33,611 nucleotides of DNA from Rhodospirillales bacterium (GCA_947469635.1 CANIRG010000013.1:1-33611); one strand, 5' to 3'; positions 7,246 through 32,869 are shown, counted from the stretch's first letter. Numbers and translations: made by a program. The notes: generated by a model from the letters alone, not told the origin.

Positions 7246-7268
7246 CCCGGAAGACATGAGCGTAGTGC

Positions 7269-8252: not shown

Positions 8253-8265
8253 GAGGCCCGAAGAA

Positions 8266-14738: not shown

Positions 14739-16118
14739 ATGAATCCCGAGAAGATCCTCGTTCGATACGACCAGATGTCCGAGCAGGTCGAAGGCCCGGT
14801 CAAGCGCATCGTGGGCTTCGTCAAGGCGAAGAATATGCTGCCGTTGTTCGATGCCGCCGACCTGGAGGCCAATCCGCGCTCTGCGAAGGCCGGCCCGGTC
14901 ACCGAGGCCATCATCGACAGCATCACCGAAACGCCCAAGACGTTTCCCTTCAAGACCAAAGGCGTACTCGTCGGCGCCTCGGATTACGATGCACTCGATC
15001 GCAAGCGCTACGAGCTCAGGTTCGAGAACCCGCGCGTCGAGGGTATCCTGGATGGTGGCCACAACATGCTGGCCATCGGCATCTACATCCTGGATCAGGC
15101 CGTCGATGATCCCAAGATGATCAAGAGCCTGCGCACCTGGCCCGCTTTCAAGGACGCATGGCAGCAGTACCGGAGGGAGATCGCGGCGTTGCGCCGTTCC
15201 GGTCCGGACGACGAAGGCGAGGCCGGTCCGCTCGACTTCCTCGTGCCGCTCGAGATTATCGTTCCGTCCGACCTCGACGACCAGGACGTCGTCGAAGAGT
15301 TCAAGACCCAGCTTCTCGACATCTGCGCTGCGCGCAACAACAACGTCGAGCTACGTCTCGAAACTAAGGCCAACCAGAAGGGCTACTACGAGACACTGCA
15401 ACGGGCACTGCCGCGCGCCATCGCCGACAAGATCGAGTGGAAGACCAACGACGGGGGTACCGTAAAGGTTCGCGATCTCATTGCGCTGGCCTGGATCCCG
15501 CTGTCGGTTTTGAAGCTGCCCGAGCCGTTGCAGCACATTCGCGTCGTGCCGCAGAACATCTATCGCAACAAGGGCGAGTGCGTGAAGCTGTTTGACGAGC
15601 TGATGAGCCACGAACTGGTATCGCGGCCGACCGGCGGCGAGTACACCCACGAACTACATAATCCGGCGGTGGCCAGTGCGCTCCGGATCGCGGCCGAGTT
15701 GCCGAAGCTTTACGACCGCATCTACGAAGACTTCCCGGCCGCCTACAACGGTAACAATGGGGAGGGTCGTTTCGGCCGTCTGGCCGTCGTCAAAATGGCG
15801 AGCAATATGCGATCGGTGCCCGAAACCCATTTCGGCGGCGAGCCCGTCGCGTACGCCTATCCGGACGGCCTGATCATGCCGCTCGTCTATGGCCTCCGGG
15901 CCCTGATGAAAGTCGCTCCCGACGGCCAGGTCTGCTGGAAGAGGAACCCGATGCAATTCCTCGATGCCCATCTCGAGTCCATCGTCCGTAAGTACCGCGT
16001 CATCCTCGATGCCTTCCGTGCCGATCCTCAGAAAGTCGGCAAGAACGAGGGTTCCTACGATCTCGTGCTCGATGCATTCGAGACCGAACTCCTAAAAAGC
16101 AGCCAGGAAGCGGCATGA
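14739..16118 (+). CDS. Unknown protein with DGGH motif (possible DGQHR/AIPR/ParB-like relationship)
   Basis: 459-aa ORF, RBS AAGGAG upstream; VEGILDGGHNMLAIGIYIL motif. First gene of the operon. Confidence 0.8.
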   Translation: MNPEKILVRYDQMSEQVEGPVKRIVGFVKAKNMLPLFDAADLEANPRSAKAGPVTEAIIDSITETPKTFPFKTKGVLVGASDYDALDRKRYELRFENPRVEGILDGGHNMLAIGIYILDQAVDDPKMIKSLRTWPAFKDAWQQYRREIAALRRSGPDDEGEAGPLDFLVPLEIIVPSDLDDQDVVEEFKTQLLDICAARNNNVELRLETKANQKGYYETLQRALPRAIADKIEWKTNDGGTVKVRDLIALAWIPLSVLKLPEPLQHIRVVPQNIYRNKGECVKLFDELMSHELVSRPTGGEYTHELHNPAVASALRIAAELPKLYDRIYEDFPAAYNGNNGEGRFGRLAVVKMASNMRSVPETHFGGEPVAYAYPDGLIMPLVYGLRALMKVAPDGQVCWKRNPMQFLDAHLESIVRKYRVILDAFRADPQKVGKNEGSYDLVLDAFETELLKSSQEAA

Positions 16119-17371
16119 GGGTTGCCGTCCGCCGGCCGGCGGAAGCAGCGTTCGGCAGTTTGGTCTTGCGCTCGGAGTTGAGGTCCAGTGAAATGACACT
16201 TGGGGTTGTGGGGGAGTCATGGGGAGTGGTCCAGCAGGCCGCGAGTCCCGGTCTGCCGATTTCAGAATTGTCCGATATGGCCCGTGATCCGCACGCCCTG
16301 CGGCTGCACGGCCTTGCCCATGTGCCGCTTCAGCCGGACGTCAATGCGGCCGATAGCGCGTGGGAAGCGGACGACTACGGAGTCTCCGACGAATACCTGC
16401 CTCTGAGCGCTCGCGCTTCGGCGCCTCCGGGAGATGGTCTTCTGCCGGGCCTGCTGCCTGAAGTGTCGAACGTCGACATGGATCTGCCGCTCTTCAAGAA
16501 CATTCAGACTCAGGTCGCGGATTTCGATCCGGACGCCGACGCGATCGGCTCATCCTCCCTGGAGGATGACGACGCCGATGCCGAATCTTTGGCCTCGGAC
16601 AAGGACATTGCCGAGCAGAACGAACTGCCCGATCTGCCCGACGATGATTTCGACTTCGAGGCCGGAACGCCCGACGAGCCGGGCGCATATCTCTTGGAAG
16701 AACGTGACGCGCGCGCCCTGTCGTGGGACGCCGTTGTCGAACTTCCCGATTTCGACCCCGACGCTCGCGTCGTGCCTTGGACCGTTCCGGCGGAAGCCGA
16801 TGACACGGCCAGGAGGAAGGCGCGACTCAAAGCCGCCGGCCTGGCAGCAGTACTCGATCTCACGACGACGACGGAAGTCGAGAAGGCGACCGGCTATCTG
16901 GTCGACTTCTATTGCCGCCATCGTCATCCGTCGACACACGGCGCCCTGATGCGGCTCGCCGATGAAGATCTCGATCTGGATACGTTGAAGGCAATGGTCG
17001 AACTGCGCCTCGAATGGGCGCAGCGGCCGGACTGGTGGCTGTTCCGTCACAAGGGCGAAGTCCGGCAGGTCGAGAGCTGCCTTTGGGCGATGACCTGGCG
17101 ACTTGCGCACGACGTCTGCCGGAGCCGCAGCGAGTTTCCACCCGAGTCCATGATCGACGAAGACTGGGCGGACGAATGGCACAATCTGCGCTTCGGCGCG
17201 CCCGGGTATTTCAGTTTTGCCGACCTGATCGCGGAAAAGGTCGATTCCCGGGAGGCTGGCCTGCTTTACGACGGTCTGCGGCAGGCACCCGGAGACCATC
17301 GGGATTCACCTGATCCCGGCGATCACCATTCCGATCTCCATCGCGCCAATGCCGCGCGGAGGGAATCATGA
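16115..17371 (+). CDS. Unknown protein with acidic central segment
   Basis: ATGA overlap on both sides; acidic stretch SSSLEDDDADAESLASDKDIAEQNELPDLPDDDFDFEAGTPDE; no recognised domain. Confidence 0.75.
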   Translation: MRVAVRRPAEAAFGSLVLRSELRSSEMTLGVVGESWGVVQQAASPGLPISELSDMARDPHALRLHGLAHVPLQPDVNAADSAWEADDYGVSDEYLPLSARASAPPGDGLLPGLLPEVSNVDMDLPLFKNIQTQVADFDPDADAIGSSSLEDDDADAESLASDKDIAEQNELPDLPDDDFDFEAGTPDEPGAYLLEERDARALSWDAVVELPDFDPDARVVPWTVPAEADDTARRKARLKAAGLAAVLDLTTTTEVEKATGYLVDFYCRHRHPSTHGALMRLADEDLDLDTLKAMVELRLEWAQRPDWWLFRHKGEVRQVESCLWAMTWRLAHDVCRSRSEFPPESMIDEDWADEWHNLRFGAPGYFSFADLIAEKVDSREAGLLYDGLRQAPGDHRDSPDPGDHHSDLHRANAARRES

Positions 17372-20208
17372 CCGAGGAAGTGCTTGTGCCCGGTCAGGGA
17401 AGCTGGGTGCGGCGACCGGCGACCCCCGGCCAGTTCGGCCAGGTGCTCGGCCAGCGCGGGGCCGCCGACCGGCCCGAGCTGCGTGTAAAGTGGCGCGATC
17501 GGGAAGAATGGGTTCCGCTCGCGGACCTTCGTTCGGGATTTCAATCCGGCTGGGCCGTCCAGGACGTGCCGATTTCATCGACGCGCAAGCCGCTTGGGCC
17601 GGGCCGGGTGATCGGCAATCGTGCGCTCGGGGAGCGCGAGCAGTCGCTGGTCCAGCTCGATAGCACGGGACACAGCGTCTGGCTGCCGTACGAGAATCTG
17701 AGGCGCATCAAGGACGCGCGTCACCGCTATGTCCGCGGCGAAACCAACCTGTCGGATCATCCGGAACGCTTTCGATTGAAACTTCTCGCCCACGCCCTGG
17801 AAAACTGGAACTCTCTCACCGGTTCGCTGGATCGCCTCGACGTCGATCCCCTGCCGCATCAGATTCAACTCGTTCACCGGATCCTGACGTCCGGCAACTA
17901 CAACTGGCTGATCGCCGACGATGTCGGCCTCGGCAAGACGATCGAAGTAGGCCTTCTGCTCGCGGCATTGAAGCGCACGAACCGCGCACGGCGTGTCCTG
18001 GTGGTGGCGCCTGCAGGCCTCGTGCGCCAGTGGCAGGACGAACTGAAGTTCAAGTTTGGCGAGGACTATCTCATATACGGCCACGACTTCGAGATCAACC
18101 GGCCCGATCACTGGAGGCTTTACGACAAGGTGATCGTCTCGCTCGACCGTGCCAAGCGAGACGACCACATGGCGTCGATCCGGCAGGCTGGTGGCTGGGA
18201 TGTCGTCGTGTTCGATGAAAGTCACAAGCTCAGCCGCTACGCCGACGGATCGCGGGCTCAGCGCTACCGGCTGGCCGAAATGCTGCGACCCCTCTCCGAC
18301 GCTTTTCTGCTGTTGAGCGGTACGCCGCACCAGGGTTACGTCGACCGGTTCATGGCCCTGCTCGAATTGGTCCGGCCCGATCTTGCACCGCAGATCCAGA
18401 CGCTCGAAGCCAATCCCGAGATCGTGCGTGAGATGATCCTTCGTAATCGCAAGAGCGACGTCACCGATGCCGACGGCAACTTCATCTTCCGCGGTCACCA
18501 GGTCCATCGCGTGCCGATCGAGCCGTCCGCCGAGACTCGCGAATTTCAGACTCTGCTGAACGACTATCTGCGGCGCGGCTATCGGGCGGGCGATGCCGGC
18601 GGGACTGCCGGCCGCGCCATCGGCTTCGTGATGACGACCTACCGCAAGCTCGCATCGTCCAGCATCGCGGCAATCCAGAACGCGCTCGAGCGGCGGCTGG
18701 ACCGGCTACGGGGCGAGACCAGGGAAACGTCCGGTCTGCCGTCGACGCAGGGCCAGCTCGAGCTGGAAGATCTCGTCGAGGGTGGCGACGATCAGGACGA
18801 TCTCGCGCGGACCGCTTCGGTCACCCGCGCCCAGGAATTCTTCGATCACGAGCACGACATGCTGACGGCTCTGATCGCAAAGGCAGGTGTCGTGCGCGCT
18901 CAGGACGAGAAGCTGCGCATCTTCCTCGAACAGGCGGCCGACCGTCTGGTGGCTGCCGGCAAGAAGCTGCTGGTCTTCACCGAATACCGCGCGACCCAGG
19001 CCTATCTCAAGGAGGCGCTGGAAGCCCGCTTCCCGCAGGCCGGCGAAGTGCTGCAGATCAATGGCTCGATGAAACTCGAAGACAAGCTCGAGTCCATCCG
19101 GAAGTTCAACGAGGGCGAAAACGTCTTTCTGGTATCGACCGAGGCCGGCGGCGAAGGTCTCAACCTGCATCACGCCTGTCACGTCATGATCAACTACGAT
19201 CTGCCGTGGAATCCGGCGCGGCTCGTACAGCGTATCGGCCGTCTCTACCGCTACGGCCAGAAGGAGACCGTTGTCGTCGTCAATCTCCACGCCCGCGACA
19301 GCTTCGACAATGCCGCGATCGATCTCATGATGGCCCGCGTCGCCCAGATCGCCCAGGACATGGCGCCCGTCGGAACCGAGTACAACGATCGCCTTCACGC
19401 CGATATCCTGGGCAATCTTCTCGAAAATCTCGATCTCGCGGCTATCCTTCAGGCCGCGTCGTCGATGGAAGTGTCCAGGACGCGCGAACAGATCGAAGAG
19501 GCGGTGGCGCACGCCCGGCGCGCTCAGGCCATGCAGGAAGAGATCTTCGCTCACGTTGATGGCTTCGACCCGAATGCCCTGGGGGGCACCATCGGCTTCA
19601 CCATGAATCATGTCGGAACTTTCGTGCGCCGCATGCTGCCTCTGGCCGGGATCGCCATCGAACGCGAGAGCCACGACGGGGCGGTGCTCGAGCTCCGACT
19701 GCCCGAAAACCAGCGCGGTGCGCATCCCGAGTTCGACCAGAGGACGGTGGTGCGCATCACCACCGATCGCCGTCTGGCGCAGCGCCTCGGCGACGTGCTG
19801 CTGCTCGACTTCGAATCGGCTTTTTTCCGCCATCTCGTAGACCTTGCCCAGTCGCAGAGGTTCGATGGTCTTTATGCCTCCATGGCGATGGGACCGGACG
19901 TGCGAGGGGTGTTGGGCGCCTTCAAGGTGCGCTGGCAGAACGACCAGGGCGAGCCGCTCACGGAGGAATTCCTGCCGGTATTCCTGGGCTCCGACGGCCG
20001 AACCGAGATCAATCCGCCCTTCTTTGCGTCGCTGCTGCTCGAAGGCGCGCCGTCTGTTCCGATTCCCAATGCGCCTGCGACCGATCGCGACGCCGCTTTC
20101 CAGCTTCTGGTCGACCGCGCCAACCGGCGGCTCGCCGAGGAATGCACGCGTTTCAAGCACCCGAACGGACTGGTCTACCTCGCCGCTGCCGACTGTCGGC
20201 CTGCGTGA
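17368..20208 (+). CDS. SNF2/RapA-like superfamily 2 helicase
   Basis: LIADDVGLGKTIEVGLLLAAL (Walker A), VVFDESHKLSR, LLLSGTPHQG, EAGGEGLNLHHACHVMINYDLPWNPARLVQRIGRLYRYGQ (motifs V/VI). Confidence 0.93.
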   Translation: MTEEVLVPGQGSWVRRPATPGQFGQVLGQRGAADRPELRVKWRDREEWVPLADLRSGFQSGWAVQDVPISSTRKPLGPGRVIGNRALGEREQSLVQLDSTGHSVWLPYENLRRIKDARHRYVRGETNLSDHPERFRLKLLAHALENWNSLTGSLDRLDVDPLPHQIQLVHRILTSGNYNWLIADDVGLGKTIEVGLLLAALKRTNRARRVLVVAPAGLVRQWQDELKFKFGEDYLIYGHDFEINRPDHWRLYDKVIVSLDRAKRDDHMASIRQAGGWDVVVFDESHKLSRYADGSRAQRYRLAEMLRPLSDAFLLLSGTPHQGYVDRFMALLELVRPDLAPQIQTLEANPEIVREMILRNRKSDVTDADGNFIFRGHQVHRVPIEPSAETREFQTLLNDYLRRGYRAGDAGGTAGRAIGFVMTTYRKLASSSIAAIQNALERRLDRLRGETRETSGLPSTQGQLELEDLVEGGDDQDDLARTASVTRAQEFFDHEHDMLTALIAKAGVVRAQDEKLRIFLEQAADRLVAAGKKLLVFTEYRATQAYLKEALEARFPQAGEVLQINGSMKLEDKLESIRKFNEGENVFLVSTEAGGEGLNLHHACHVMINYDLPWNPARLVQRIGRLYRYGQKETVVVVNLHARDSFDNAAIDLMMARVAQIAQDMAPVGTEYNDRLHADILGNLLENLDLAAILQAASSMEVSRTREQIEEAVAHARRAQAMQEEIFAHVDGFDPNALGGTIGFTMNHVGTFVRRMLPLAGIAIERESHDGAVLELRLPENQRGAHPEFDQRTVVRITTDRRLAQRLGDVLLLDFESAFFRHLVDLAQSQRFDGLYASMAMGPDVRGVLGAFKVRWQNDQGEPLTEEFLPVFLGSDGRTEINPPFFASLLLEGAPSVPIPNAPATDRDAAFQLLVDRANRRLAEECTRFKHPNGLVYLAAADCRPA

Positions 20209-23200
20209 GCATGGAAGAATTTGACGTGAAGCAGCCTCGAAAGGCCGCCGTCGCCGCTCCCGAGCGTGGCGAGACCGGCCTGCGCGACAACCGTGAGCGC
20301 GGTTCCGTCGCCGACTTTCTGCGTGGCGCGATTGCGCCGGGCGCGAAACTTTCTGTCGCCTCGGCCTACTTCACGATCTACGCCTACAATCTGTTGAAGG
20401 AAAAGCTGAACGCCATCGACCGGCTCGAATTCCTGTTCGGCGAGCCGTCCTTCCTCGCGCAGGTCAATCCAGAGCGAATGCCGAAGAAGTCGTTCATCAT
20501 TGATTCCGAAGGCCTGTCGCTGGCAACGCGGCTGGAGCAGAAGCGGGTGGCGCGCCAGTGCGCCGAATGGATCGACGCCAAGGCCGACATCAGGACGGTG
20601 CGGCAGGCCAATCTGCTGCATGGCAAGATGTATCACGTTGCCAACGGCGCGTTCGACCAGGCGGTTCTCGGCAGCTCGAACTTCACCGTCCGCGGCCTAG
20701 GACTCGGCAACGGCAACAACAATATCGAGCTCAACCTGGTCGTCGACTCCAAACGCGACCGGCAGGAAGTGAAAGCCTGGTTCGATGAAATCTGGAACGA
20801 CAAGAAACTCGTAGTCGATGTCAAGCAGGAGGTCCTGCGCTACCTGCGCCGCCTCTATGCCGACCAGTCTCCCGAATTCATTTACTACCTGACGCTTTTC
20901 CACCTCTTTGGTGCCTTTCTCGAAGGCGACCGCGACATCGACGAAGACCTGCGTCGCGTCGCCCTTACCGAAACCGACATCTGGAAAACGCTGTTCACTT
21001 TCCAGAGGGACGGTGCCAAAGCGGCAATCAGAAAGATTCTCGACTACAACGGCTGCATTCTCGCCGACAGCGTCGGTCTTGGAAAAACCTACACGGCGCT
21101 CGCGGTCGTCAAGTACTTCGAACTGCGCAACGAGCGTGTTCTGGTGCTCTGTCCCAAGAAGCTCACGCGCAACTGGACGATCTACCGCCAGCCAAGCGAG
21201 CTCAATCCGTTCATGGCGGATCGCTTCCGGTACGATGTCCTGCACCATACCGATCTTTCGCGTACGTCAGGTGAGGTCAACGGAATCGATCTGGCCAGAT
21301 TGAACTGGGGCGCTTACGATCTCATCGTCATCGACGAGTCGCATAACTTCCGCAATAACAAGCAGGCGACCCAGCGTACCGGCGAAGCCGAGCGTCGCAG
21401 CCGCTACGAACGCCTGATGCAGGATATCATTTCCGCAGGCGTGCGAACCAAGGTCCTGCTGCTATCCGCGACGCCGGTAAACAATCAGCTCGCCGACCTG
21501 CGCAATCAGATTTCCTTCATCGCCGGCGGTGACGTGGCGCGCGAGGATCGGCCGGACGGGGCGTTCGGCGACAGTCTTGGCATTCGATCGGTCAAGGATA
21601 CGACGCGCCTGGCCCAGGCTCAATTTACCACCTGGTCGCGGCGCCGGCCGGAGCAGAGGCGGACCAGGGATCTAATCTCCGCGATCGGAGGCGACTTCTT
21701 CAGGATGCTTGATGGGCTGAGCATCGCGCGTTCGCGACGCCAGATTGCGACACACTACACCGAGGAAATGAAAAGGCTGGGCGGCTTTCCGCGCCGACCA
21801 CCGCCGCGCGCGATCCATCCCGAAATCGACACGAAGGGCAAGTTTCCGGCTTTCGAGACGCTTGACGGCGAAATCGGCGGACTCCGCCTTTCGCTTTATC
21901 ACCCGACGCGCTTTCTGCGCTCCGATCTGCCGAAGGCGACCCGCGAGGAATACAATAGGAAGATCCTGGGCGGCTTCACGCAGGAAGGTCGCGAGCGAAT
22001 CCTCATCTCGATGATGAAGGTCAATTTCCTGAAACGTCTCGAGAGCTCTATCGATTCCTTTCGCGTCACACTCGAGCGCACGATCGACAAGGTCAAGACT
22101 CTGGAAAAACGCATCGGTGATTTCGAGACGCACCGTGATACTCACCCCGACATTGACTATGACTCGCTGACGCCAGAGGCTTTCGAGGATCCCGATTTCG
22201 AAGACGACGAATTCACCATCGGCGGGCGACGACGCATTCATCTCGCGCACCTGGACCTGCCGAAGTGGCTGAAGGCGGTGGGCGAGGACCGCCGTCAGCT
22301 GCAAGCCCTGCTGAAACTCGCCCAGCCGATAACACCAGCGCGCGATCGAAAACTCGCCGAGCTGAGAAAGATCATCAAGGACAAGGCGACGAATCCGTCG
22401 ACGACCCGAGATGGCAAAAGCAACCGAAAGGTACTTGTCTTCACGGCTTTCGCCGATACGGCGCGATATCTTTATCGCGAGCTGGCGGATTGGGCGCGGA
22501 AGGATCTCGGCATTCACGTCGGCCTGGTGTGTGGCGACGGCGGGAACAAGGCTTCTCTGGGCGGCACCGACTTCGACGACATCCTGACCAATTTTGCCCC
22601 CATTGCGAAAGGCAGGAGCCGGCAGACCGCCAATTTCAAGGATCAGAAGTCGGAGATCGACCTGCTGATCGCCACCGACTGCATCAGCGAGGGCCAGAAC
22701 CTTCAGGATTGCGACCTCCTCGTCAATTACGACATTCACTGGAATCCGGTGCGCATTATCCAGCGCTTCGGCCGCATCGACCGTATCGGCTCGCGCAACG
22801 ATGCCGTCCACCTGGTCAACTTTTGGCCGGTCGCCGATCTCGATCAATATCTCGGGGTCAAGCTTCGGGTGGAATCGCGCATGGCGCTCGTCGATCTCAC
22901 GGCAACCCAGACCGACAATCTGCTCGATCGCGATCAGCTCGACGAGTTGATCAATGAAGATCTTCTCTTCCGCAACCGGCAGCTCACGCGTCTCAAGGAC
23001 GAGGTGGTCGATCTCGAAGATCTGGGCGAGTCCGTCTCCCTGACGGATTTCTCGCTCGACGAGTTCCGTCTCGATTTGCTGAATTACCTCAAGGGCAATC
23101 GCGAAGCGCTCGAGGATGCGAGCGAGGGCCTCTACGCTATCGTGCCGCCGAAGGCCGATGTGCCGGTGGCCCGGCCCGGCGCGCTTTTCTGCCTGCGCCA

Positions 23201-23609
23201 CCGTGCAGCCGCGACGGAACGCAGCGGCGCCTTCGACTCCCAGAAGCTCAACCCGCTCGATCCCTATTACCTGGTCTTCGTGCAGGACGACGGTGAGGTG
23301 CGGCTAACCTTCACCCAGCCCAAGGAGTGCATCCTGCTGATGCGCGATCTGTCGGCCGGCGAGCGCGAAGCCTTTTCCCGTGTCTGCGAGCTTTTCGACC
23401 GGCGCACCGCAGACGGCACCGACATGGCGCACTACGACGGCTTGTTGGCCGGCGCCCTTGCGTCCATTGAGCAGACCTTCGGAAAGCGCGCCGCGAACAG
23501 CCTGGCGACCAGCCGGGGCGCGGTGCTGCCTCGATCGGGGGCGAGGCCGACGGCAAACGGTGCCGACTTCGATCTCGTCACCTGGCTTGTCATCCTGAAA
23601 GCGGAATAG
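20205..23609 (+). CDS. PLD-like (HKD) domain fused to SNF2-family helicase
   Basis: LLHGKMYHVANGAFDQAVLGSSNFTVRGLGLG (HxK...GSSN PLD motif) then ILADSVGLGKTYTALAVVKYF, VIDESHNFRN, LLSATPVNNQ, CDLLVNYDIHWNPVRIIQRFGRIDRIGSRND. Start GTG 20205 or ATG 20211. Confidence 0.9.
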   Translation: MSMEEFDVKQPRKAAVAAPERGETGLRDNRERGSVADFLRGAIAPGAKLSVASAYFTIYAYNLLKEKLNAIDRLEFLFGEPSFLAQVNPERMPKKSFIIDSEGLSLATRLEQKRVARQCAEWIDAKADIRTVRQANLLHGKMYHVANGAFDQAVLGSSNFTVRGLGLGNGNNNIELNLVVDSKRDRQEVKAWFDEIWNDKKLVVDVKQEVLRYLRRLYADQSPEFIYYLTLFHLFGAFLEGDRDIDEDLRRVALTETDIWKTLFTFQRDGAKAAIRKILDYNGCILADSVGLGKTYTALAVVKYFELRNERVLVLCPKKLTRNWTIYRQPSELNPFMADRFRYDVLHHTDLSRTSGEVNGIDLARLNWGAYDLIVIDESHNFRNNKQATQRTGEAERRSRYERLMQDIISAGVRTKVLLLSATPVNNQLADLRNQISFIAGGDVAREDRPDGAFGDSLGIRSVKDTTRLAQAQFTTWSRRRPEQRRTRDLISAIGGDFFRMLDGLSIARSRRQIATHYTEEMKRLGGFPRRPPPRAIHPEIDTKGKFPAFETLDGEIGGLRLSLYHPTRFLRSDLPKATREEYNRKILGGFTQEGRERILISMMKVNFLKRLESSIDSFRVTLERTIDKVKTLEKRIGDFETHRDTHPDIDYDSLTPEAFEDPDFEDDEFTIGGRRRIHLAHLDLPKWLKAVGEDRRQLQALLKLAQPITPARDRKLAELRKIIKDKATNPSTTRDGKSNRKVLVFTAFADTARYLYRELADWARKDLGIHVGLVCGDGGNKASLGGTDFDDILTNFAPIAKGRSRQTANFKDQKSEIDLLIATDCISEGQNLQDCDLLVNYDIHWNPVRIIQRFGRIDRIGSRNDAVHLVNFWPVADLDQYLGVKLRVESRMALVDLTATQTDNLLDRDQLDELINEDLLFRNRQLTRLKDEVVDLEDLGESVSLTDFSLDEFRLDLLNYLKGNREALEDASEGLYAIVPPKADVPVARPGALFCLRHRAAATERSGAFDSQKLNPLDPYYLVFVQDDGEVRLTFTQPKECILLMRDLSAGEREAFSRVCELFDRRTADGTDMAHYDGLLAGALASIEQTFGKRAANSLATSRGAVLPRSGARPTANGADFDLVTWLVILKAE

Positions 23610-23612
23610 TCC

Positions 23613-26600
23613 ATGGCCGACCGCGTCGATTGCCGCGCCGACATTGCCGCGGCTCTGTCCAGCCTCGCCGACGGCCCCTTGCCCGGAGGCGGCGGCGCAG
23701 TCTTCGGCGCCATGGGGTACCGTTCCGATCGTACCCTGCCCATGGCGACCGCCCGAGAATTCATTGTCGAGTTCGACGCGGGCGGGCGCCTGACGGAGAA
23801 CGAACGCGAGGCTCTCGGCCGGTCTTCGGCACTCCACCTCCTCTTTCAGCTCACGGATGACGAACTGGCCGTTCACGGCGACATGTTCAAAAGCTCCACG
23901 GAACTGCGTCCGGGCGATTTTAACTCCTATCTCTTCTTCGACGTCGAACTGCCGGCGCGGCCGCATACCCGGACCGAGCTCTCGGGACTGGTGCGCACGA
24001 TCAACAAGCCACTCGCCATGCCCGCTCTCGTCCTCTTCCGTCACGGCGAGAAGGCCTCCCTTGGTATCGTTCATCGCCGCCTCAGTCGACGTGATACGGG
24101 CAAGGACGTTCTGGAAAAGGTCACGCTGGTCAAGGACATCGATCTCGCGAGCCCGGTACGCGCCCACCTAGAGATCCTGAACGACTTCGCTTTCGAAAAT
24201 CTGAAGGCCGACTTCGAGATCTCGAGTTTCTCGGGCCTGCATGAGGCCTGGCAGAAGCGGCTCGATGCCGACGCGTTGTCGCGGAACTTCTATCGCGAGG
24301 TGGCCGACTGGTACTTCTGGGCTCACCACCTTGTCGATGACGGAAAAGTCGAGCTGCCCCGCGACTGCGATACCGAGCAGGAGCAGTCGCTGTTTCTGAT
24401 TCGTCTGCTCACCCGGATCATTTTCTGCTGGTTTCTGGTCGAAAAGCGCCTCGTGCCACCCGAGATATTCCAGCCTCATCGTCTGAAGGAGCTGCTCAAG
24501 GATTTCAATCCTTCGACGGACGCCCGCAAGCCGGACAAGGCGCCGACCTACTATCACGCCGTGTTGCAGAACTTGTTCTTCGGCACCCTCAACATGCCGC
24601 GTGACCTGCGTGGATTCCGCGAGAAGAAGGCGGCGGGCGAGCGCTACGACGGCAACTACGGGGTCACCAACCTGTGGCGGCATGAGGTGGATTTTCAACA
24701 TCCGGCCGCCTGGGAGGCTCTTGCCGCCCGTGTGCCTTTCCTGAACGGCGGGTTGTTCGACTGCCTCGACGACAAGCCGGGTCGTGGCCAGCAGGCCACC
24801 ATCCTCGACGGCTTCTCCGACAATCCGAAGTTCGCCTGCCTGCTGCCGAACGACCTCTTCTTCGGCGCCGAGCGGACGGTCGATCTATCGAGCGACTATG
24901 GCGAGAAGGACAAGAAGTCAGCGCGCTCCAAGAAAGCCAGGGTGCGCGGCCTCATCGAGATTCTTGCCCGCTACAAGTTCACCATCGAGGAGAACACGCC
25001 ACTCGAAGAGGAAATCGCCCTAGATCCCGAACTGCTGGGCAAGGTCTTCGAGAATTTGCTGGCCTCTTTCAACGAAGATACGCGTACCACTGCCCGCAAG
25101 GCGCTGGGTGCCTTCTACACGCCGCGCGAGATCGTAAGCTACATGGTCGACGAGGCGCTGAAGGCCTATCTCGCCGGCACGGTCCCGCGCTGCAAAGGCA
25201 TCCTGGACGACCTCTTCTCCAACAAGGCGGTACCTCGCGACATTCCAGAGGAGACGCGCGTCTCTCTCGTTCGGGCGATCGGCGGCGTGAAGATTCTGGA
25301 TCCTGCGTGTGGCTCCGGGGCATTTCCAATGGGCGCCCTGCATCGCCTCGTCGATTTGCTCGCCAAGCTCGATCCCAACAACGAATCGTGGAAACGCGAC
25401 AGGCTAGCGGTGGCTCGTCTCGATCTTGATTGGCTGAAGCGGGAAGACGCAGGCGCCGACCGGATTGCCGATGCCGAGGCACGCATCGTCGACATCGAGA
25501 AGTCCTTCGACACGCGCTTCCATGCGCTGGACTATGCCCGAAAGCTCTATCTGATCGAGAACGCCATCTATGGCGTCGATATCCAGCCGGTGGCCGTCCA
25601 GATCGCCAAACTGCGCTTCTTTATCTCTCTCGTCGTCGACCAGAACGTCGATCCGTCCGCCGACAATCTCGGTGTTCGGCCGTTGCCCAATCTTGAAACG
25701 CGCCTGGTCGCGGCGAACACCTTGATCCCGATTGAAAAGGAGGAAAGCACTCTTTTTTCCGGCGTAATCGAAAAGCTACGGCGGGAGCTCACGGAGATTC
25801 GCCACGAACACTTCAATGCACGTTCACCTGCCACCAAGAGGAAATGGCGCAATGAAGATCAGTCCAAGCGCCAAGAGATTTCCCGACACCTCGAACAAAA
25901 TCATATGCTCAGCAAGAGCGGCGCCAGAACGCTCGCCGCGTGGGATCCCTATAACCAGAACGCTTCGGCGGCGTTCTTCGACTCTGAGTGGATGTTCGGT
26001 CTGCCGATTGGCAAGACGAAGCGCCAAGGCCGCAGCTTGGTGACTATGCTCGGCAATCTAGCGCTTGTGAACGAAGCAGGCGGGCAGAGCGAGCTGATTG
26101 CGGCGCAAATCGACGAGGAAGAGAGCGGCTTTGATGTGGTGATTGGGAATCCACCGTACGTGCGGATTCAAACGTTGAAGAAGAAAGATCCCGAATTTGT
26201 GCGCTTTTTAGGTCGGAACTATTTGAGCGCCGGACAAGGTAGCTATGATCTCTATGTCACATTTATCGAAGCTGGTTTGCGCCTGCTTAAAGCCGGAGGA
26301 TCTCTGGCCTTCATCTGTCCGCACAAGTTCTTTAACTCTAAGTATGGCGAACCGCTTCGATCGCTAATTTCTGCCGGGCGGCAACTTCGACATGTCGTTC
26401 ACTTCGGCGATCAGCAGGTTTTCCCCGGCGCTTCAATTTATACTTGCTTGTTGTTCTTGTCGAAGGCGCCGCTCGACGAGTGCCGCTTCCAACAAGTTGA
26501 GGATCTGGATGTATGGAAGCGTACGCTAGCCGCTCCAACGAGCATTGTAGCATCGGCCGCGATAACAAAGGCAGAGTGGAACTTTGCTGTCGGTAAGAGC

Positions 26601-27698
26601 GGCGGACTATTTAATGAGTTGATGGCTATCCCTCTAAAGCTATCGGACGTCGTCAATCGAGTATTTCAAGGTCCCATAACCAGCGCTGATACGGTTTACC
26701 TGTTTAAGGAGGCATCCCATGCAAGGGGACGCACGACCAAGGTATTCTCGAAGCAACTGGGTCAAGAAGTTGAGCTTGAATCAAAACTTCTTAAGCGCGT
26801 CGTCAGAAGTGGCGAAATTGGTCGCTACGAAGCAAATCCGACGGCGCTGGTCCTTTTCCCGTACGAGATTGATGGTACCGAAGCGCAACTTCTCACGGCT
26901 GCCTCACTTCGTGATTCGTTTCCGCTCGCTTGGAAATATCTTTTGAAGAACCGCAAGGTGCTTTCCGCCAGAGAGGATAGCGCCTTTGACGATGCTCGCT
27001 GGTACAGGTTCGGCCGCACTCAGAATCTTGGCTTGTGGGAGCAGCCAAAGATCATGGTGCCTTACATGGTTACTCGGCTAGCGGCTCATCTGGATCAAGA
27101 AGATCATCTCTATTTTGTGAATGTTACAACAGGGGGGTACGGAATCACTGTCAACCCTAAGAAACTTTCGCTCGGTGCGCTTTGCGCGTTCCTCAATTCT
27201 CCCATTTTGGATTTCTGTCTGAAGCGGGTCTCTTCCAACTTTCGGGGCGGCTACTTTCCTGCAAACAAGCAGTACTTGGATCAACTCCCAATAGTCCTTC
27301 CGTCAGATCGTGAAGCTGAAACGCTGTCGTTGCTCGGTCGGATAATTGGGCTTACGAAGCAGCATTCGGCGGCGGGCGCTGGCACTAACGCCAACGTTAG
27401 CCAACAAATGCTGGAGTTCTGGGAGCAAGTCCAGAACGCGATCATCTACGCGATCTATTTTCGTGACAGTTTGTCGGCAATTCGCGCGGAGCTTGTCGAT
27501 AAGTTGTATAGCGAACAACTGATGAGAATTGGTAGCGAGCCTCGTAGCAATTGGGCGCTGCCTCTCCGTTCTCTTTACGATCGTTTAATCAATTCCACGC
27601 CACAGTTACGTAGCATGCTGAACGCTGTGGAGACGTTCGATGCGGTGCGTACTATTGAGAATGAAAGTCGCTCCGCTCGGCGAGAGGGTGAAAAATGA
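23613..27698 (+). CDS. Eco57I/PglX-like N6-adenine DNA methyltransferase with C-terminal specificity region
   Basis: TARKALGAFYTPREIVSYMVDEAL, VKILDPACGSGAFPMGALHRL (SAM motif I), DVVIGNPPYVRIQTLKK (NPPY), long C-terminal TRD-like region. Confidence 0.9.
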   Translation: MADRVDCRADIAAALSSLADGPLPGGGGAVFGAMGYRSDRTLPMATAREFIVEFDAGGRLTENEREALGRSSALHLLFQLTDDELAVHGDMFKSSTELRPGDFNSYLFFDVELPARPHTRTELSGLVRTINKPLAMPALVLFRHGEKASLGIVHRRLSRRDTGKDVLEKVTLVKDIDLASPVRAHLEILNDFAFENLKADFEISSFSGLHEAWQKRLDADALSRNFYREVADWYFWAHHLVDDGKVELPRDCDTEQEQSLFLIRLLTRIIFCWFLVEKRLVPPEIFQPHRLKELLKDFNPSTDARKPDKAPTYYHAVLQNLFFGTLNMPRDLRGFREKKAAGERYDGNYGVTNLWRHEVDFQHPAAWEALAARVPFLNGGLFDCLDDKPGRGQQATILDGFSDNPKFACLLPNDLFFGAERTVDLSSDYGEKDKKSARSKKARVRGLIEILARYKFTIEENTPLEEEIALDPELLGKVFENLLASFNEDTRTTARKALGAFYTPREIVSYMVDEALKAYLAGTVPRCKGILDDLFSNKAVPRDIPEETRVSLVRAIGGVKILDPACGSGAFPMGALHRLVDLLAKLDPNNESWKRDRLAVARLDLDWLKREDAGADRIADAEARIVDIEKSFDTRFHALDYARKLYLIENAIYGVDIQPVAVQIAKLRFFISLVVDQNVDPSADNLGVRPLPNLETRLVAANTLIPIEKEESTLFSGVIEKLRRELTEIRHEHFNARSPATKRKWRNEDQSKRQEISRHLEQNHMLSKSGARTLAAWDPYNQNASAAFFDSEWMFGLPIGKTKRQGRSLVTMLGNLALVNEAGGQSELIAAQIDEEESGFDVVIGNPPYVRIQTLKKKDPEFVRFLGRNYLSAGQGSYDLYVTFIEAGLRLLKAGGSLAFICPHKFFNSKYGEPLRSLISAGRQLRHVVHFGDQQVFPGASIYTCLLFLSKAPLDECRFQQVEDLDVWKRTLAAPTSIVASAAITKAEWNFAVGKSGGLFNELMAIPLKLSDVVNRVFQGPITSADTVYLFKEASHARGRTTKVFSKQLGQEVELESKLLKRVVRSGEIGRYEANPTALVLFPYEIDGTEAQLLTAASLRDSFPLAWKYLLKNRKVLSAREDSAFDDARWYRFGRTQNLGLWEQPKIMVPYMVTRLAAHLDQEDHLYFVNVTTGGYGITVNPKKLSLGALCAFLNSPILDFCLKRVSSNFRGGYFPANKQYLDQLPIVLPSDREAETLSLLGRIIGLTKQHSAAGAGTNANVSQQMLEFWEQVQNAIIYAIYFRDSLSAIRAELVDKLYSEQLMRIGSEPRSNWALPLRSLYDRLINSTPQLRSMLNAVETFDAVRTIENESRSARREGEK

Positions 27699-30600
27699 TT
27701 CCTCTTGCCCACCTTACTATTCGTGTCGCGTGGCACGACTCATCTTGGAACGGCTCAGTCTGTTCGCGGCCGGGGCTGAATTCTTTCTGCACGTCTCTGC
27801 CGCGAATTCGCGAGGGAAGATCCGACAGCGAAGAGGCTCTGGCTGGTCGTCCCTTCCACAAGCTCACACAGGATCAGCTCCCTCCGTGCAAGGCCGAGTC
27901 GGGCTTCTTCATGAGCCCACAAAAGTGGATGCGGGAGTTCGAGCATCCTTATGTCAAGAACAAGAACTGCGTCGAAACGCACGGCGACCTGAAACCGCGC
28001 AAGCTCGAGGTGCCGGCCTGGTCCGCTATCTCTGTTCCCTTCAACTGGATGCTGCGGCGGCGCCAGAAGGAGATCGATGCAAGGATGGTGAAGGCCCTGC
28101 CGTCCGACGAGCAGCCGCCTTTCCCTTCGCCCTGGGTATTCGGACGTGAGCGCCAGGACGCGCTCGTTGAACATGTTTATGGCAGGCTCGCCAAAGAGAA
28201 GTCGTTGGTCCTCTTCTATACGAAGGAAGGTCATCCGCTGGGCGACGATCTGCGCCGCCTGATCGTCGGCGTCGGTCGCATCGTCTCCGTCGGCAAACGC
28301 GAGCACTACGACCGCAAGAACGGCCAACTGGGACATCCTCTCTGGGACCGTATCATCGGGCATTCGATCCGGCCCGACGGGCACGATGGATTTCTGCTGC
28401 CGTATCACGAGTATCTCAAGCTGACCGGCGATGATGTCGAAGATGCGCGTCGTGCCGCGCTGCTTCGCGAGATCGCCGTCACCCCGCCGCCGGCCCGCAT
28501 TGGCGACTTTTCATACGGCTCCGAGTTGACCGACGCCGACGTGGCGCTGTCGGTGCTGAGCCGCCTGCTCGCGGCCGTGCGGCGCATCCGGGAGCACGGC
28601 ATCGCCGAGGGGCCTTGGCAGAAACGCGAGGAGTGGCTGAACCAGCAACTCGATCTCGCCTGGAAGGATCGTGGCGCCTTCCCGGGGACGGGTGCCTTGC
28701 TGGAGGCGCTTGGCATGCGGCTGGGTACGGCGTTGTTCATGGAGCTGCGCGCTACGGGCGTTCTGCAGCCTCACAGCGATCCCTGGCCAATTCTGGAGGA
28801 GGTCTTCAAGGGCAAGAGGAAGCCACCGGACGCAGCCTTCGCGCCGGATATCTCGGCCGTAGCGCCGACAGTGCTGGGCCTTGCGCCTGCCCGGCGCACG
28901 CTGCTGCATCTCCTGTCGAGGTTCGATCTCACACCCGACCAGGCACGCCGGATCTGGGACGAAGCGCAGCGGCGCCGCGGCTTCACGGTCCAGACGAGCG
29001 ACGAGGAAATCGTCTCAAATCCGTACCTGATCGCCGAGCGCGATCTGGGCGGCGGCGAAGACGCTTCGGTCTCCCTACAGGATATCGATCGCGGCCTGCT
29101 GCCGGACAAGGCGATCGGCGACGCGCCGAAGGTGCCGGCCCCGAGCGGTGTTGGCTCACCCATGGATTCTCGCCGCGTCCGCTGTGCGCTCGTGTCCGTC
29201 CTGCGCGACGCGGCAGCAGCCGGCGATTCCCTGCTCAGCCTGGAGGAAACCCTCGATCGCCTGAAGCCCCTGGGCGGTGACAGCCCGATCGTCGTTTCAA
29301 CCGACTGGATCGAGGGCAACAAAGTCTTCATCGAACAGACGATTGCCCGGCTCGCCGTTGCCAGGTCGGGCCTGGCCGGAAAAAGCGTACCGGCCCTGCA
29401 GCTTGTCGAGCTCAAGCAGCGCGAGGAGAAGCTGGGCAAAGTTCTGCGCGCGCGTTGCGCCAGGGACATCGCGCCGCCCAAGGTCGACTGGAAGAAGCTT
29501 ATCGTCGCGGCAGTCGAGGCGAGCGGTCAGAAGGTCGATTCTACGAGCGCCCGCCACAAGGCGGCGCTGGAGGAACAGGCAAAGGCGCTGGAAGCCGTCT
29601 GCTCGCGCCGTCTGTCGGTCCTCACCGGCAACGCCGGTACCGGCAAGACCTCCGTGATCGGCGGGCTTGTCCTGTGCGAACCGCTGCGCAAGGAGGGGCT
29701 GCTGCTGTTGGCACCCACCGGCAAGGCACGCGTGCGCCTGCAGGGCGCGACGGATGCCACGGCGATGACCGTGGCGCAGTTCCTTTATGGCCTGAAGCGC
29801 TACGACGGGCTGCGCCAGCGGCCACTGTTCGACGGCAAGGAAACGTACAAATCGGCAAAGACGGTGGTCATCGACGAAGCCTCAATGCTGACCATGGACG
29901 ACCTCTACGCCGTATTGCAGGCGCTGGATCAGGCCCACGTCCAGCGGATCGTTCTGGTGGGTGATCCCAATCAACTGCCGCCGATCGGCGTCGGCAGGCC
30001 CTTTGCCGATCTGATTTCCTGGCTCGCGACGGCCAAGGAGTCCGATCTGCCGGAAGATCGAAAGGCAGCGCCTGCGCTCGCGAAGCTGACCGTTGAAGTC
30101 CGGTCCGTGGGCGACACCTCGGCTAAGGACGGCAGCGCACGGTCCGACACGCTGCGGCTGGCCTCGTGGTTCACCGGAACCCCGCCTGATGGCGATGCCG
30201 ACCAGGTGCTTAGCCGGTTGGCGCTGGGCGAAAGCCTGAACGATCTTGAGGTGGCGTATTGGACCGGGCCGCATGATCTTCGCAATAAACTCGTCGACCA
30301 GTTCGTCAAGCATCTGGGCCTCAAGGACGCCAGCGATGCCAAAGGTTTCAGTAAGTCGTTCGATTTCGCCGATGAGGGCTGGATCCGCCGCGACAATCCG
30401 GACGGCATCGAAAACTGGCAGCTGCTGACGCCGACCCGCATGCACGCTCATGGTGTTGCCGAGCTCAATCGCTGGATCCAGGGACAGTTCCGCGCCAACG
30501 AGATCCAGGCCGCCCGCAATTTCCGGGGCGTAGCACTGGGAGACGAAGGCATCGTCCGCAATGACAAGGTAATCCAGCTCAAGAACGGGGTGCGAGATTG

Positions 30601-31414
30601 CTATCACTGGGAGACCAGGGAGCAGGCGGAGGACTATCTCGCCAACGGCGAGATTGGTGGCGTAAGTGTCGGTCAGAAGGGCTTCTTGAACGTCTTCTTC
30701 GCCGGGAGACCCTTGGTCAGCTTCGGCTATAGATCGGGCGATTTTGGTGAAGACAGAATTCCGCTTGAGCTTGCGTACGCTCTCACTATCCACAAAGCGC
30801 AAGGCAGCCAGTTCCGTACTGTTTTCGTCGTGCTGCCCAAAGCGTCGCGGCTGTTGAGCCGGGAGCTGGTCTACACCGCGCTCACACGTTCGAGGCAGCG
30901 GATGGTGCTGTTGATCGAAGGCGACAATCCTGGATTGTTGCACGACCTCAGCAGGCCCGAGAAATCGGATGCATGTCGGCGCAATACAAACCTGTTCTCG
31001 GGCATTCTGCGCGAGCGCGGCGGCGAGCCGCCCTACGCGGAAAACCTCATCCACCGGACCGAGACCGGGCACATGGTTCGTAGCAAATCCGAGCTGGTGA
31101 TCGCCAATCTCCTTCATCGGGAGGGCATCGCCTATCAGTACGAACAGCCACTCGAGGGAGAGGCGGCCCCCGGCCGGCTGCATCCCGACTTCACCTTCAC
31201 GGACGCGGGCGGCGACCGAATCGTCTGGGAGCATCTCGGCATGATGGACGATCCCGACTACGTCCGCGGCTGGAAGTGGAAGCAGGAGTGGTATCTGAAG
31301 AATGGGTATGTGCCGGGACAGAACCTCTTCGTTTCCGAAGAACGAAAGGGTCAGGGTCTGGACATGGAGAAGTTGAATGCTATGGCCGCGACCATCCGGT
31401 CACTGGTCGCCTGA
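27695..31414 (+). CDS. RecD/TraA-like superfamily 1 helicase with C-terminal PD-(D/E)XK-like nuclease motif
   Basis: LTGNAGTGKTSVIGGL, VIDEASMLTMDDLY, LVGDPNQLPPIGVG, ALTIHKAQGSQFRTVFVVLP...LVYTALTRSRQRMVLLIEG; C-terminal RSKSELVIANLLHREGIAYQYEQPL...HPDFTF...IVWEHLGMMDD. ATGA overlap with the methyltransferase. Confidence 0.9.
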   Translation: MIPLAHLTIRVAWHDSSWNGSVCSRPGLNSFCTSLPRIREGRSDSEEALAGRPFHKLTQDQLPPCKAESGFFMSPQKWMREFEHPYVKNKNCVETHGDLKPRKLEVPAWSAISVPFNWMLRRRQKEIDARMVKALPSDEQPPFPSPWVFGRERQDALVEHVYGRLAKEKSLVLFYTKEGHPLGDDLRRLIVGVGRIVSVGKREHYDRKNGQLGHPLWDRIIGHSIRPDGHDGFLLPYHEYLKLTGDDVEDARRAALLREIAVTPPPARIGDFSYGSELTDADVALSVLSRLLAAVRRIREHGIAEGPWQKREEWLNQQLDLAWKDRGAFPGTGALLEALGMRLGTALFMELRATGVLQPHSDPWPILEEVFKGKRKPPDAAFAPDISAVAPTVLGLAPARRTLLHLLSRFDLTPDQARRIWDEAQRRRGFTVQTSDEEIVSNPYLIAERDLGGGEDASVSLQDIDRGLLPDKAIGDAPKVPAPSGVGSPMDSRRVRCALVSVLRDAAAAGDSLLSLEETLDRLKPLGGDSPIVVSTDWIEGNKVFIEQTIARLAVARSGLAGKSVPALQLVELKQREEKLGKVLRARCARDIAPPKVDWKKLIVAAVEASGQKVDSTSARHKAALEEQAKALEAVCSRRLSVLTGNAGTGKTSVIGGLVLCEPLRKEGLLLLAPTGKARVRLQGATDATAMTVAQFLYGLKRYDGLRQRPLFDGKETYKSAKTVVIDEASMLTMDDLYAVLQALDQAHVQRIVLVGDPNQLPPIGVGRPFADLISWLATAKESDLPEDRKAAPALAKLTVEVRSVGDTSAKDGSARSDTLRLASWFTGTPPDGDADQVLSRLALGESLNDLEVAYWTGPHDLRNKLVDQFVKHLGLKDASDAKGFSKSFDFADEGWIRRDNPDGIENWQLLTPTRMHAHGVAELNRWIQGQFRANEIQAARNFRGVALGDEGIVRNDKVIQLKNGVRDCYHWETREQAEDYLANGEIGGVSVGQKGFLNVFFAGRPLVSFGYRSGDFGEDRIPLELAYALTIHKAQGSQFRTVFVVLPKASRLLSRELVYTALTRSRQRMVLLIEGDNPGLLHDLSRPEKSDACRRNTNLFSGILRERGGEPPYAENLIHRTETGHMVRSKSELVIANLLHREGIAYQYEQPLEGEAAPGRLHPDFTFTDAGGDRIVWEHLGMMDDPDYVRGWKWKQEWYLKNGYVPGQNLFVSEERKGQGLDMEKLNAMAATIRSLVA

Positions 31415-31576
31415 GCGGCCGAAAGCAGATCGCTGCATGCCTACTGTCGGCTAGATAGTCAAAGCTCAACGCCGTGCCAGGGCGCTCGAAGTATTATCTA
31501 GAAAGGTGTCTCCCCGAATGTCCAAGCGCACAAAACGCACAGTCCCTCGCCGGGAGACTATGATCCCTGAAGGAGG

Positions 31577-32869
31577 ATGACCTTGCCAGTCAATTCGACG
31601 GTTCTCTTCGGGACGCCTCACACTGCTATCGCTTCCTTGATCCGCGCTCGCATCGACGCGTCTATATCCACGCGGGTTGTTACGGGGTTCGCTACACTTG
31701 GCGGTCTGGCAGCAATTGAGACACCGATAAGGGCAAATCCAAACAAGCTTAAAACGTTGGTTGTCGGTGCTGCCACGTATCCAGCATTCCAAGCACTAGA
31801 TGAATTAATTGTGGCTGGCGTTTCACAATCGAATTTGCGGGTTCATTTGGGACACACAAGTTTCACGGGTGGCCGAAGGCATCCATTTGTTCGCTACCAT
31901 CCAATGCTTCACAGCAAGATCTACTACATGGACATGCCAGGAGATGCAGCCTGTGTATTCGTCGGTTCTCACAACCTGACATCGTTTGCGCTCGGGGGCC
32001 TGAATGGAGAAGCTTCCGTTTTGTTGGAAGGTCCGGCGGCAGATGTGGAATTCTGCAAAGTAAGGCAACACATCGACGCCCTTGAGCGCGAAGCGGCGCC
32101 ATATTCACAGGCTCTCAAGGAGGCATACGCTTGGTGGTCCAGGCAATATTTCGACGGTATGGGCGTTGAGATCGGTCTTCCTCACGATTGGACGACGGTG
32201 CGGACGATCCTGATTTTTACAACCGCACCAGAGCGTCGTAAGCCCAAGGTCGGAGACCACATATATTTCGAGATTCCCTACGGTATTCAGATAGAGAGGC
32301 TCCGCACAGAGGTGCACGTTTTTGTATTCGATGCATTGCCGTCGAGCCCTTGGGAGGCGCTTGCTCGACTATCATCTGCCAAAGAGAGCTTTACGGGAGA
32401 GGCTTCGGGCGCGGACAACGAACAGGGCAATGTGGAGGTGGTTGCTGATTGGCAAGTGGAACGAACACCTCAACCTGTGCTGCGGTCACTGCCAAATGGG
32501 CGACATCGACCGTTGACCCCGAGCGACAAGCAGCAGGTCCGGGCCAAAGTCGTGAGTTTGAATGTCACCCAATGGGACTATGCTTTCGAACGCGAAAAGA
32601 CTGGATGGGACCCGGCGTTCGGACCTGACTCCGAAGTCCTGCGCCAAGATCACGGCAACGATGAGCCGTTTGCAAAGGCTCTTGGCGCTGATCGCGAAAA
32701 GGCCCCTTGGAGATTGGTCGCGAATCTGCGACCTCGCACTGGACCGGCCAAAGAGGCGGACGAACAGGCCTTGGAATTGGCGAAACCCGAATCGGGCGCA
32801 TACGTTATCGTTGCCCTGCGAAGACGTCCGATTCGAGATCAGCCCATAGAACAACGCGACGATAAGTGA
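31577..32869 (+). CDS. Stand-alone phospholipase D-like (HKD) domain protein
   Basis: PMLHSKIYYMDMPGDAACVFVGSHNLTSFALGGLNGEASVLL (HxK...GSxN); RBS AGGAGG just upstream. Confidence 0.82.
   Translation: MTLPVNSTVLFGTPHTAIASLIRARIDASISTRVVTGFATLGGLAAIETPIRANPNKLKTLVVGAATYPAFQALDELIVAGVSQSNLRVHLGHTSFTGGRRHPFVRYHPMLHSKIYYMDMPGDAACVFVGSHNLTSFALGGLNGEASVLLEGPAADVEFCKVRQHIDALEREAAPYSQALKEAYAWWSRQYFDGMGVEIGLPHDWTTVRTILIFTTAPERRKPKVGDHIYFEIPYGIQIERLRTEVHVFVFDALPSSPWEALARLSSAKESFTGEASGADNEQGNVEVVADWQVERTPQPVLRSLPNGRHRPLTPSDKQQVRAKVVSLNVTQWDYAFEREKTGWDPAFGPDSEVLRQDHGNDEPFAKALGADREKAPWRLVANLRPRTGPAKEADEQALELAKPESGAYVIVALRRRPIRDQPIEQRDDK

What the first reader, a model, noticed from the sequence alone, without database searches (positions are those of the whole stretch)
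14739..32869. Candidate undescribed methylase-helicase-PLD-nuclease defence operon
Seen: six genes on one strand joined by 4-bp stop/start overlaps (ATGA at 16115, 17368, 27695; GTGA possible at 20205) or a 3-bp gap (23613), plus a seventh PLD gene 162 bp downstream. Products: DGGH-motif protein, acidic unknown, SNF2 helicase, PLD-SNF2 fusion, Eco57I/PglX-like adenine methyltransferase, RecD-like helicase with a PD-(D/E)XK-like tail, PLD protein. Established: methyltransferase plus SNF2 helicase plus PLD protein is the logic of DISARM, and PglX-like methyltransferases are central to BREX. No DrmA/DrmB (DUF1998), PglZ, BrxC or BrxL is recognisable in this window. Inference: a multi-gene restriction-like anti-phage system distinct from both.
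Basis: partly seen in the sequence, partly recalled or inferred. Interest (0 to 1): 0.87.

Follow-up and report, generated by a model that had tools for sequence, protein, structure and literature searches.

The report
Composite restriction-modification defence gene block
Seven co-oriented genes that looked like one undescribed anti-phage operon are better read as a stack of separately mobile defence modules inside an integrated element, built around a widespread but unnamed methyltransferase plus nuclease-helicase restriction pair.

Summary
The seven ORFs, their coordinates and junctions are confirmed. The reading as one conserved seven-gene system is not: no other genome examined carries this order. 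Comparative genomics splits it into modules. (1) The PLD-SNF2 helicase (20205-23609) and Eco57I-type adenine methyltransferase (23613-27698) are a conserved pair: of 53 loci with enough flank, from many phyla, 48 carry both; catalytic motifs are invariant. (2) The first gene is a divergent AIPR-family protein; its orthologues sit beside other PLD-SNF2/methyltransferase pairs in three loci, and without them in two. (3) The acidic protein and SNF2 helicase form a separate two-gene module (Nitrosococcus, two Deinococcus plasmids, one further genome). (4) The RecD-like protein is PADLOC candidate PDC-S68, often standalone. (5) The last PLD protein has a paralogue in the same genome beside Zorya type I. 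The block lies downstream of an integrase and a VapE-like gene, and is bracketed by a 19-bp palindromic repeat found nowhere else in this genome. Best mechanism: ATP-dependent restriction-modification, working like CglI/NgoAVII or a split Type ISP enzyme, with add-on modules. DISARM, BREX, ARMADA and Hma membership tests fail. New variant of a known kind. Function is inferred throughout.

The parts
14739..16118 (+). P0001: divergent AIPR-family (DGGH) protein; accessory or partner of PLD-SNF2/methyltransferase pairs
   Evidence: orthologues in L145 (67% id), L146 (55%) and Roseomonas L002 (55%, operon broken by an IS5-annotated transposase) are followed by PLD-SNF2 and/or MTase genes; no such pair follows in L003 and L147.
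16115..17371 (+). P0002: acidic variable N-terminus plus C-terminal domain shared with proteins upstream of P0003-type helicases
   Evidence: C-terminal region similar to Nitrosococcus 524-aa protein (E 3e-6), which is similar to Deinococcus 1300-aa proteins (E ~1e-19) and to the G193 410-aa protein; each lies directly upstream of the P0003 orthologue.
17368..20208 (+). P0003: RapA/BrxHII-like SNF2 helicase; forms a two-gene module with P0002
   Evidence: 41-45% identical over nearly full length in L012, L013, L014, L143.
20205..23609 (+). P0004: PLD nuclease - SNF2 translocase fusion (PADLOC C3a139 HKD+Snf2); longest frame starts 20142, likelier start 20205/20211
   Evidence: HxK, GSSNFT, Walker A, DESH and motif VI core conserved in 49 of 49 sequences aligned.
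23613..27698 (+). P0005: Eco57I-type N6-adenine methyltransferase with TaqI-like C-terminal specificity domain and a conserved N-terminal region of unknown fold
   Evidence: NPPY invariant in 81 of 81; closest solved relatives are adenine-specific MTases (7lni), BseCI and TaqI; N-terminal 520 aa gave no significant PDB fold match.
27695..31414 (+). P0006: RecD-like SF1 helicase with C-terminal PD-(D/E)XK-like tail; PADLOC candidate PDC-S68
   Evidence: orthologues standalone on Rhizobium, Embleya and Vibrio plasmids; next to a PLD-SNF2 gene in L166. The tail assignment is a sequence reading.
31577..32869 (+). P0007: PLD-family protein (HxKx4D...GSHN), accessory
   Evidence: 42-44% identical paralogue in the same genome (C27) beside ZorA, ZorB and ZorC homologues.
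14455..14473 (.). left copy of 19-bp palindromic repeat CGATAATTGAATGTTATCG
32860..32878 (.). right copy CGATAAGTGAATGTTATCG, overlapping the stop of P0007
   Evidence: two copies only in the 6.3-Mb assembly (one more at 3 mismatches).
8351..9859 (+). tyrosine recombinase/integrase of the host island
10779..13070 (+). VapE-like primase/helicase, typical of satellite-type elements

Best explanation
The block is a composite defence cassette carried by an integrase/VapE island. Its core is an ATP-dependent restriction-modification pair. P0005 methylates adenine at a site chosen by its specificity domain. P0004 couples an SNF2 translocase to a PLD nuclease and cuts DNA whose sites are unmethylated. 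P0001 (AIPR) is a recurrent partner of such pairs, probably a sensor or regulator. P0002-P0003, P0006 and P0007 are further defence modules co-transcribed with or stacked on the core, each able to exist apart from it elsewhere. Shown here: gene content, domain identity, invariance of catalytic motifs, independent recurrence of the modules, non-conservation of the seven-gene order. Inferred: enzymatic activities, methylation-dependent discrimination, partner roles and any anti-phage effect.
For:: P0004 with P0005 in 48 of 53 loci with at least 4.5 kb upstream, across Verrucomicrobiota, Chloroflexota, Poribacteria, Desulfobacterota, Pseudomonadota, Spirochaetota and others. PLD, SNF2 and NPPY motifs invariant in the aligned homologues. 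P0001 orthologues next to PLD-SNF2 and methyltransferase genes in either order (L145, L146, broken copy in Roseomonas L002); the L145 methyltransferase carries the Type ISP specificity domain (244 bits). P0002-P0003 as an independent pair in four loci. P0006 mostly standalone. P0007 paralogue beside Zorya. PMC4267653: CglI and NgoAVII show that PLD nuclease plus helicase-like ATPase plus methyltransferase gives ATP-dependent, methylation-blocked cleavage.
Against: The 4-bp overlaps suggest translational coupling of most genes up to P0006, so they may work as one machine in this host. Repeats at both ends also suggest the block moved as a unit. P0001 orthologues exist without the pair (L003, L147). 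P0001-type AIPR is absent near the closest P0005 relatives. No expression or activity data.
Confidence: 0.66

Rival explanations
1. A genuine single seven-gene system, recently assembled, in which all proteins act together.
For: Overlapping starts and stops; a 19-bp repeat brackets exactly these seven genes.
Against: Order not found in any other locus examined; modules recur separately.
Confidence: 0.15
2. A DISARM, BREX or ARMADA derivative that lost its hallmark genes.
For: P0003 hits BrxHI/II and DrmD models; P0005 hits PglX weakly.
Against: All curated cut-offs missed (DrmD 312 of 610 bits; PglX 69 of 400); no DrmB, PglZ, BrxC/L or YprA found among the proteins scanned; P0003 orthologues occur with P0002-like partners instead.
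Confidence: 0.08
3. Methylation-dependent (Type IV-like) or replication-blocking defence in which P0005 marks self for signalling and P0004 does not cut unmethylated DNA.
For: PLD-helicase architecture resembles SauUSI (review PMC12707154); the same review describes BREX type 1 as restriction without cleavage.
Against: Near-constant adjacency to an active-looking methyltransferase and invariant PLD catalytic residues.
Confidence: 0.11

Closest known systems
CglI / NgoAVII ATP-dependent restriction-modification (PMC4267653, PMC5737866)
   Same: PLD-family nuclease, SF2 helicase-like ATPase and a DNA methyltransferase; cleavage needs ATP hydrolysis and is blocked by methylation
   Different: There nuclease and ATPase are separate proteins, the ATPase is DEAD/Z1 type, the nuclease carries a B3 domain and the methyltransferase is C5; here PLD and SNF2 are fused and the methyltransferase is N6-adenine
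Type ISP restriction-modification enzymes (LlaBIII/LlaGI kind)
   Same: SF2 translocase, adenine methyltransferase, specificity domain; an AIPR-linked relative (L145) has Pfam Type_ISP_C
   Different: Two polypeptides and PLD instead of an Mrr-type nuclease (the Mrr-type, single-chain description is from own knowledge); the window's own P0005 hits TaqI_C, not Type_ISP_C
PADLOC C3a139 (HKD+Snf2)
   Same: P0004 matches at 402 bits over residues 148-1121
   Different: A single-protein candidate model; it does not name the methyltransferase or AIPR partner
PADLOC PDC-S68
   Same: P0006 matches at 1353 bits end to end
   Different: None for this protein; it is a candidate of unknown mechanism
BrxHII/RapA-like helicase of BREX type 3, DISARM (DrmD) and ARMADA (PMC12839542, PMC12458937)
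   Same: P0003 SNF2 core; match extends beyond the core in the BrxHI/II model
   Different: Partner is the P0002-type protein, not PglX, YprA or BrxC

Membership tests
DISARM | DrmA and DrmB (DUF1998) present | tested here: not met
   PADLOC/Pfam/NCBIfam scans of P0001-P0010 listed no DrmB or DUF1998; the DrmA-labelled hit to P0003 lies within the shared helicase region
DISARM | DrmD above curated cut-off | tested here: not met
   P0003 311.9 bits, P0004 152.8 bits, cut-off 610
BREX | PglZ and BrxC/PglY present | tested here: not met
   No hit listed
BREX | PglX above curated cut-off | tested here: not met
   P0005 68.7 of 400 bits (BREX-2), 63.1 of 500 (BREX-1)
ARMADA | YprA-family helicase with DUF1998 | tested here: not met
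   No DUF1998 hit in the window proteins scanned; definition from PMC12458937
Hma | HmaA, HmaB and HmaC together | tested here: not met
   Only HmaA-like helicase similarity; HmaB/HmaC not among the hits listed
MADS | MAD2 methyltransferase above cut-off | tested here: not met
   P0005 21 of 720 bits
Type ISP | nuclease, translocase, methyltransferase and TRD in one chain | tested here: not met
   Two genes, 20205-23609 and 23613-27698; Type_ISP_C only in relative L145
Type IIG | nuclease domain fused to the methyltransferase | tested here: inconclusive
   Best PADLOC hits are REase_MTase_IIG but the N-terminal 520 aa model (pLDDT 82) has no significant PDB fold match
CglI/NgoAVII | PLD nuclease plus helicase-like ATPase plus cognate methyltransferase | tested here: met
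   (gene content and motifs; that the methyltransferase is cognate is inferred)
CglI/NgoAVII | C5 methyltransferase and separate nuclease with B3 domain | tested here: not met
   N6-adenine NPPY methyltransferase; PLD fused to SNF2
AIPR family (P0001) | Pfam PF10592 above cut-off | tested here: not met
   P0001 no hit; orthologues 17.4 and 15.5 bits of 25; tblastn to annotated AIPR proteins E down to 6e-10
PDC-S68 (P0006) | full-length match to PADLOC model | tested here: met
   1352.8 bits, residues 2-1234

The most novel reading that the evidence does not exclude
AIPR + PLD-SNF2 + adenine methyltransferase is a distinct, unnamed restriction class in which the AIPR protein is a required sensor or subunit, and the P0002-P0003 helicase module docks onto it to widen or back up the response.
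Probability: 0.2. Interest if true: 0.7.

Novelty: new variant of a known kind. Interest (0 to 1): 0.47.

Why it matters
The PLD-SNF2 plus adenine-methyltransferase pair occurs across many phyla, yet PADLOC labels it only as isolated parts, and the literature searches made here found no named description of the pair. It gives a testable PLD-based counterpart of Type I/ISP restriction. The locus also shows how defence modules (AIPR, a RapA-like helicase pair, PDC-S68, PLD) are stacked into one apparent operon, which warns against reading co-orientation and overlapping genes as one system.

Tried and rejected
Conserved seven-gene order: rejected. Nuclease in the P0005 N-terminus by AlphaFold and Foldseek: no match. 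Fold of P0001: moderate model (pLDDT 77, pTM 0.56), no match; PDB sequence search none. P0001 in phages, P0002 and P0007 in plasmids: none. P0003 and P0006 in viral contigs: none. The 19-bp repeat in viral contigs: two matches in unrelated contexts, roughly what chance would give (estimate from own arithmetic). Promoter and terminator scans at chance level. One name search (ZacB/ZacC) was uninformative.

Full report
OBSERVATION. The window is one whole contig of the assembly (G000:C13, 33,611 bp). Frames of 418-1361 aa with profile matches are not chance. Domain content: P0003 SNF2 helicase; P0004 PLD + SNF2; P0005 Eco57I/N6_Mtase + TaqI_C; P0006 RecD-like; P0007 weak PLD match. P0001 and P0002 had no hit in any of the three libraries.

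SURROUNDINGS. Upstream lie an integrase (8351-9859), an excisionase-like ORF (10441-10782) and a VapE-like primase/helicase (10779-13070). This is the make-up of an integrated, satellite-type island (inference). By eye, the minus strand at about 8258-8320 reads as the 3' half of a tRNA-Thr (anticodon UGU) without a matching 5' half, as expected of an attachment site; ARAGORN calls no tRNA and no second copy of the anticodon region was found in the incomplete assembly. This is inference. A 19-bp imperfect palindrome, CGATAA-N7-TTATCG, stands at 14455 and at 32860, i.e. just outside the seven genes at the left and over the last stop codon at the right. In the 6.3-Mb assembly it occurs only there, apart from one copy at 3 mismatches. 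In Markov-simulated sequence, a similar pair of any kind arises in 5 of 60 trials, a palindromic one in 0 of 60. It may mark the ends of a cassette or two operator sites; not resolved.

MODULE 1, P0004-P0005. A scan of about 85,000 species genomes with a P0005 alignment gave at least 553 relatives, of which the best 80 loci were kept. Where at least 4.5 kb upstream was available (53 loci), 48 carry a P0004 homologue, usually directly upstream. The record titles span Verrucomicrobiota, Planctomycetota, Chloroflexota, Poribacteria, Desulfobacterota, Pseudomonadota, Spirochaetota, Bacteroidota and others. The PLD residues H160, K162, G177-S-S-N180, the Walker A lysine, DESH and the motif VI core are invariant in 49 P0004 sequences; NPPY is invariant in 81 P0005 sequences. 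A third gene, an SMC/RecF-like ATPase of about 550 aa, lies in 27 of the 80 loci, typically right after the methyltransferase; the window has P0006 there instead. P0004-type proteins (about 40% identical) also occur with DUF4391 and site-specific methyltransferase genes, usually with a DEAD/DEAH helicase gene, in type III-like operons on plasmids of E. coli, Acinetobacter, Acetobacter, Desulforapulum and Methanomethylovorans. So the PLD-SNF2 enzyme is itself exchangeable between methyltransferase systems.

MODULE 2, P0001. It is rare: found only in its own genome among 299 phylum genomes, and with one convincing partial extra match among 385 class genomes. Orthologues: L145 (67%) is followed by PLD-SNF2 and a methyltransferase with a Type ISP specificity domain; L146 (55%) by a methyltransferase then PLD-SNF2; the Roseomonas copy (L002) by the start of the same methyltransferase, 76% identical to that of L146 and interrupted by an IS5-annotated transposase. 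In Subdoligranulum (L003) and L147 no such pair follows. Iyer et al. 2008 describe AIPR as commonly encoded by RM operons (PMC2292703). The PLD-SNF2 partners in L145 and L146 are only 27-29% identical to P0004 while the AIPR is 55-67% identical, so the AIPR has probably swapped partners.

MODULE 3, P0002-P0003. Near-full-length P0003 orthologues (41-45%) were found in Nitrosococcus, two Deinococcus plasmids and genome G193. In all four the gene directly upstream encodes a protein with a variable N-terminus and a shared C-terminal domain, to which P0002 belongs. P0001, P0004 and P0005 were not found as close relatives there (only cross-hits between helicase domains). P0002's own link rests on one alignment (E 3e-6 to the Nitrosococcus protein) plus identical position.

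MODULE 4, P0006, is PADLOC PDC-S68 (1353 bits). Orthologues stand alone on plasmids and were found in 3 of 298 other genomes. In L166 one lies directly before a PLD-SNF2 gene. MODULE 5, P0007, has a 42-44% paralogue in the same genome beside ZorA, ZorB and ZorC homologues.

MECHANISM. The architecture best fits ATP-dependent restriction-modification. CglI and NgoAVII demonstrate the principle experimentally: a PLD nuclease driven by a helicase-like ATPase, blocked by methylation (PMC4267653). The fusion of PLD to SNF2 and the N6-adenine methyltransferase make the present pair a variant, not a member. The N-terminal third of P0005 is conserved but gave no fold match, so a hidden nuclease there is not excluded. 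Roles of AIPR, the second helicase pair, PDC-S68 and P0007 are inference.

KNOWN SYSTEMS. DISARM, BREX, ARMADA, Hma and MADS fail on tested features (see Membership tests). The literature searches made here found no paper naming the PLD-SNF2 + Eco57I-type pair or the AIPR trio. The library is open-access only and REBASE could not be consulted, so absence of a name is weak evidence.

LIMITS. The right end of the island lies beyond the contig. Only the best 80 of at least 553 P0005 loci were read; flanks were 10 kb or less and some contigs end early, so a rare locus with the same seven genes cannot be excluded.

Noticed in passing
window 14455-14473 and 32860-32878: A 19-bp palindromic repeat with 7-bp spacer brackets exactly the seven-gene block and occurs only here in the genome at up to 2 mismatches; possible cassette ends or operator sites.
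   Followed up: partly
window 8258-8350: Looks like the 3' half of a tRNA-Thr(UGU) next to the integrase gene, a probable attachment site; not called by ARAGORN and no second copy found in the incomplete assembly.
   Followed up: partly
L164 (G000:C27), 6724-18016: Zorya type I-like genes (ZorA, ZorB, ZorC homologues) in the same genome, with a P0007 paralogue and an AAA ATPase gene on the opposite strand beside them.
   Followed up: partly
L033-L112, e.g. L037:14080-15993: An SMC/RecF-like ATPase gene near, usually right after, the P0005 homologue in 27 of 80 loci: a probable third component of the widespread pair.
   Followed up: partly
L004-L008 (plasmids): PLD-SNF2 enzymes with DUF4391 and site-specific methyltransferase genes, usually also a DEAD-box helicase gene, in type III-like restriction operons on plasmids, including E. 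coli.
   Followed up: partly
L166 (G265:C24), 5202-17001: A P0006 orthologue lies between an SNF2 helicase gene and a PLD-SNF2 gene.
   Followed up: no
window 33469-33557: Three tandem 23-bp units (TTCCGATTGATCGCGACCACC-like) at the contig end, perhaps the end of a multicopy insertion sequence that broke the assembly.
   Followed up: no
L002 21441-23231: The Roseomonas copy of the AIPR-methyltransferase operon is interrupted by an IS5-annotated transposase, with further transposase genes downstream.
   Followed up: no
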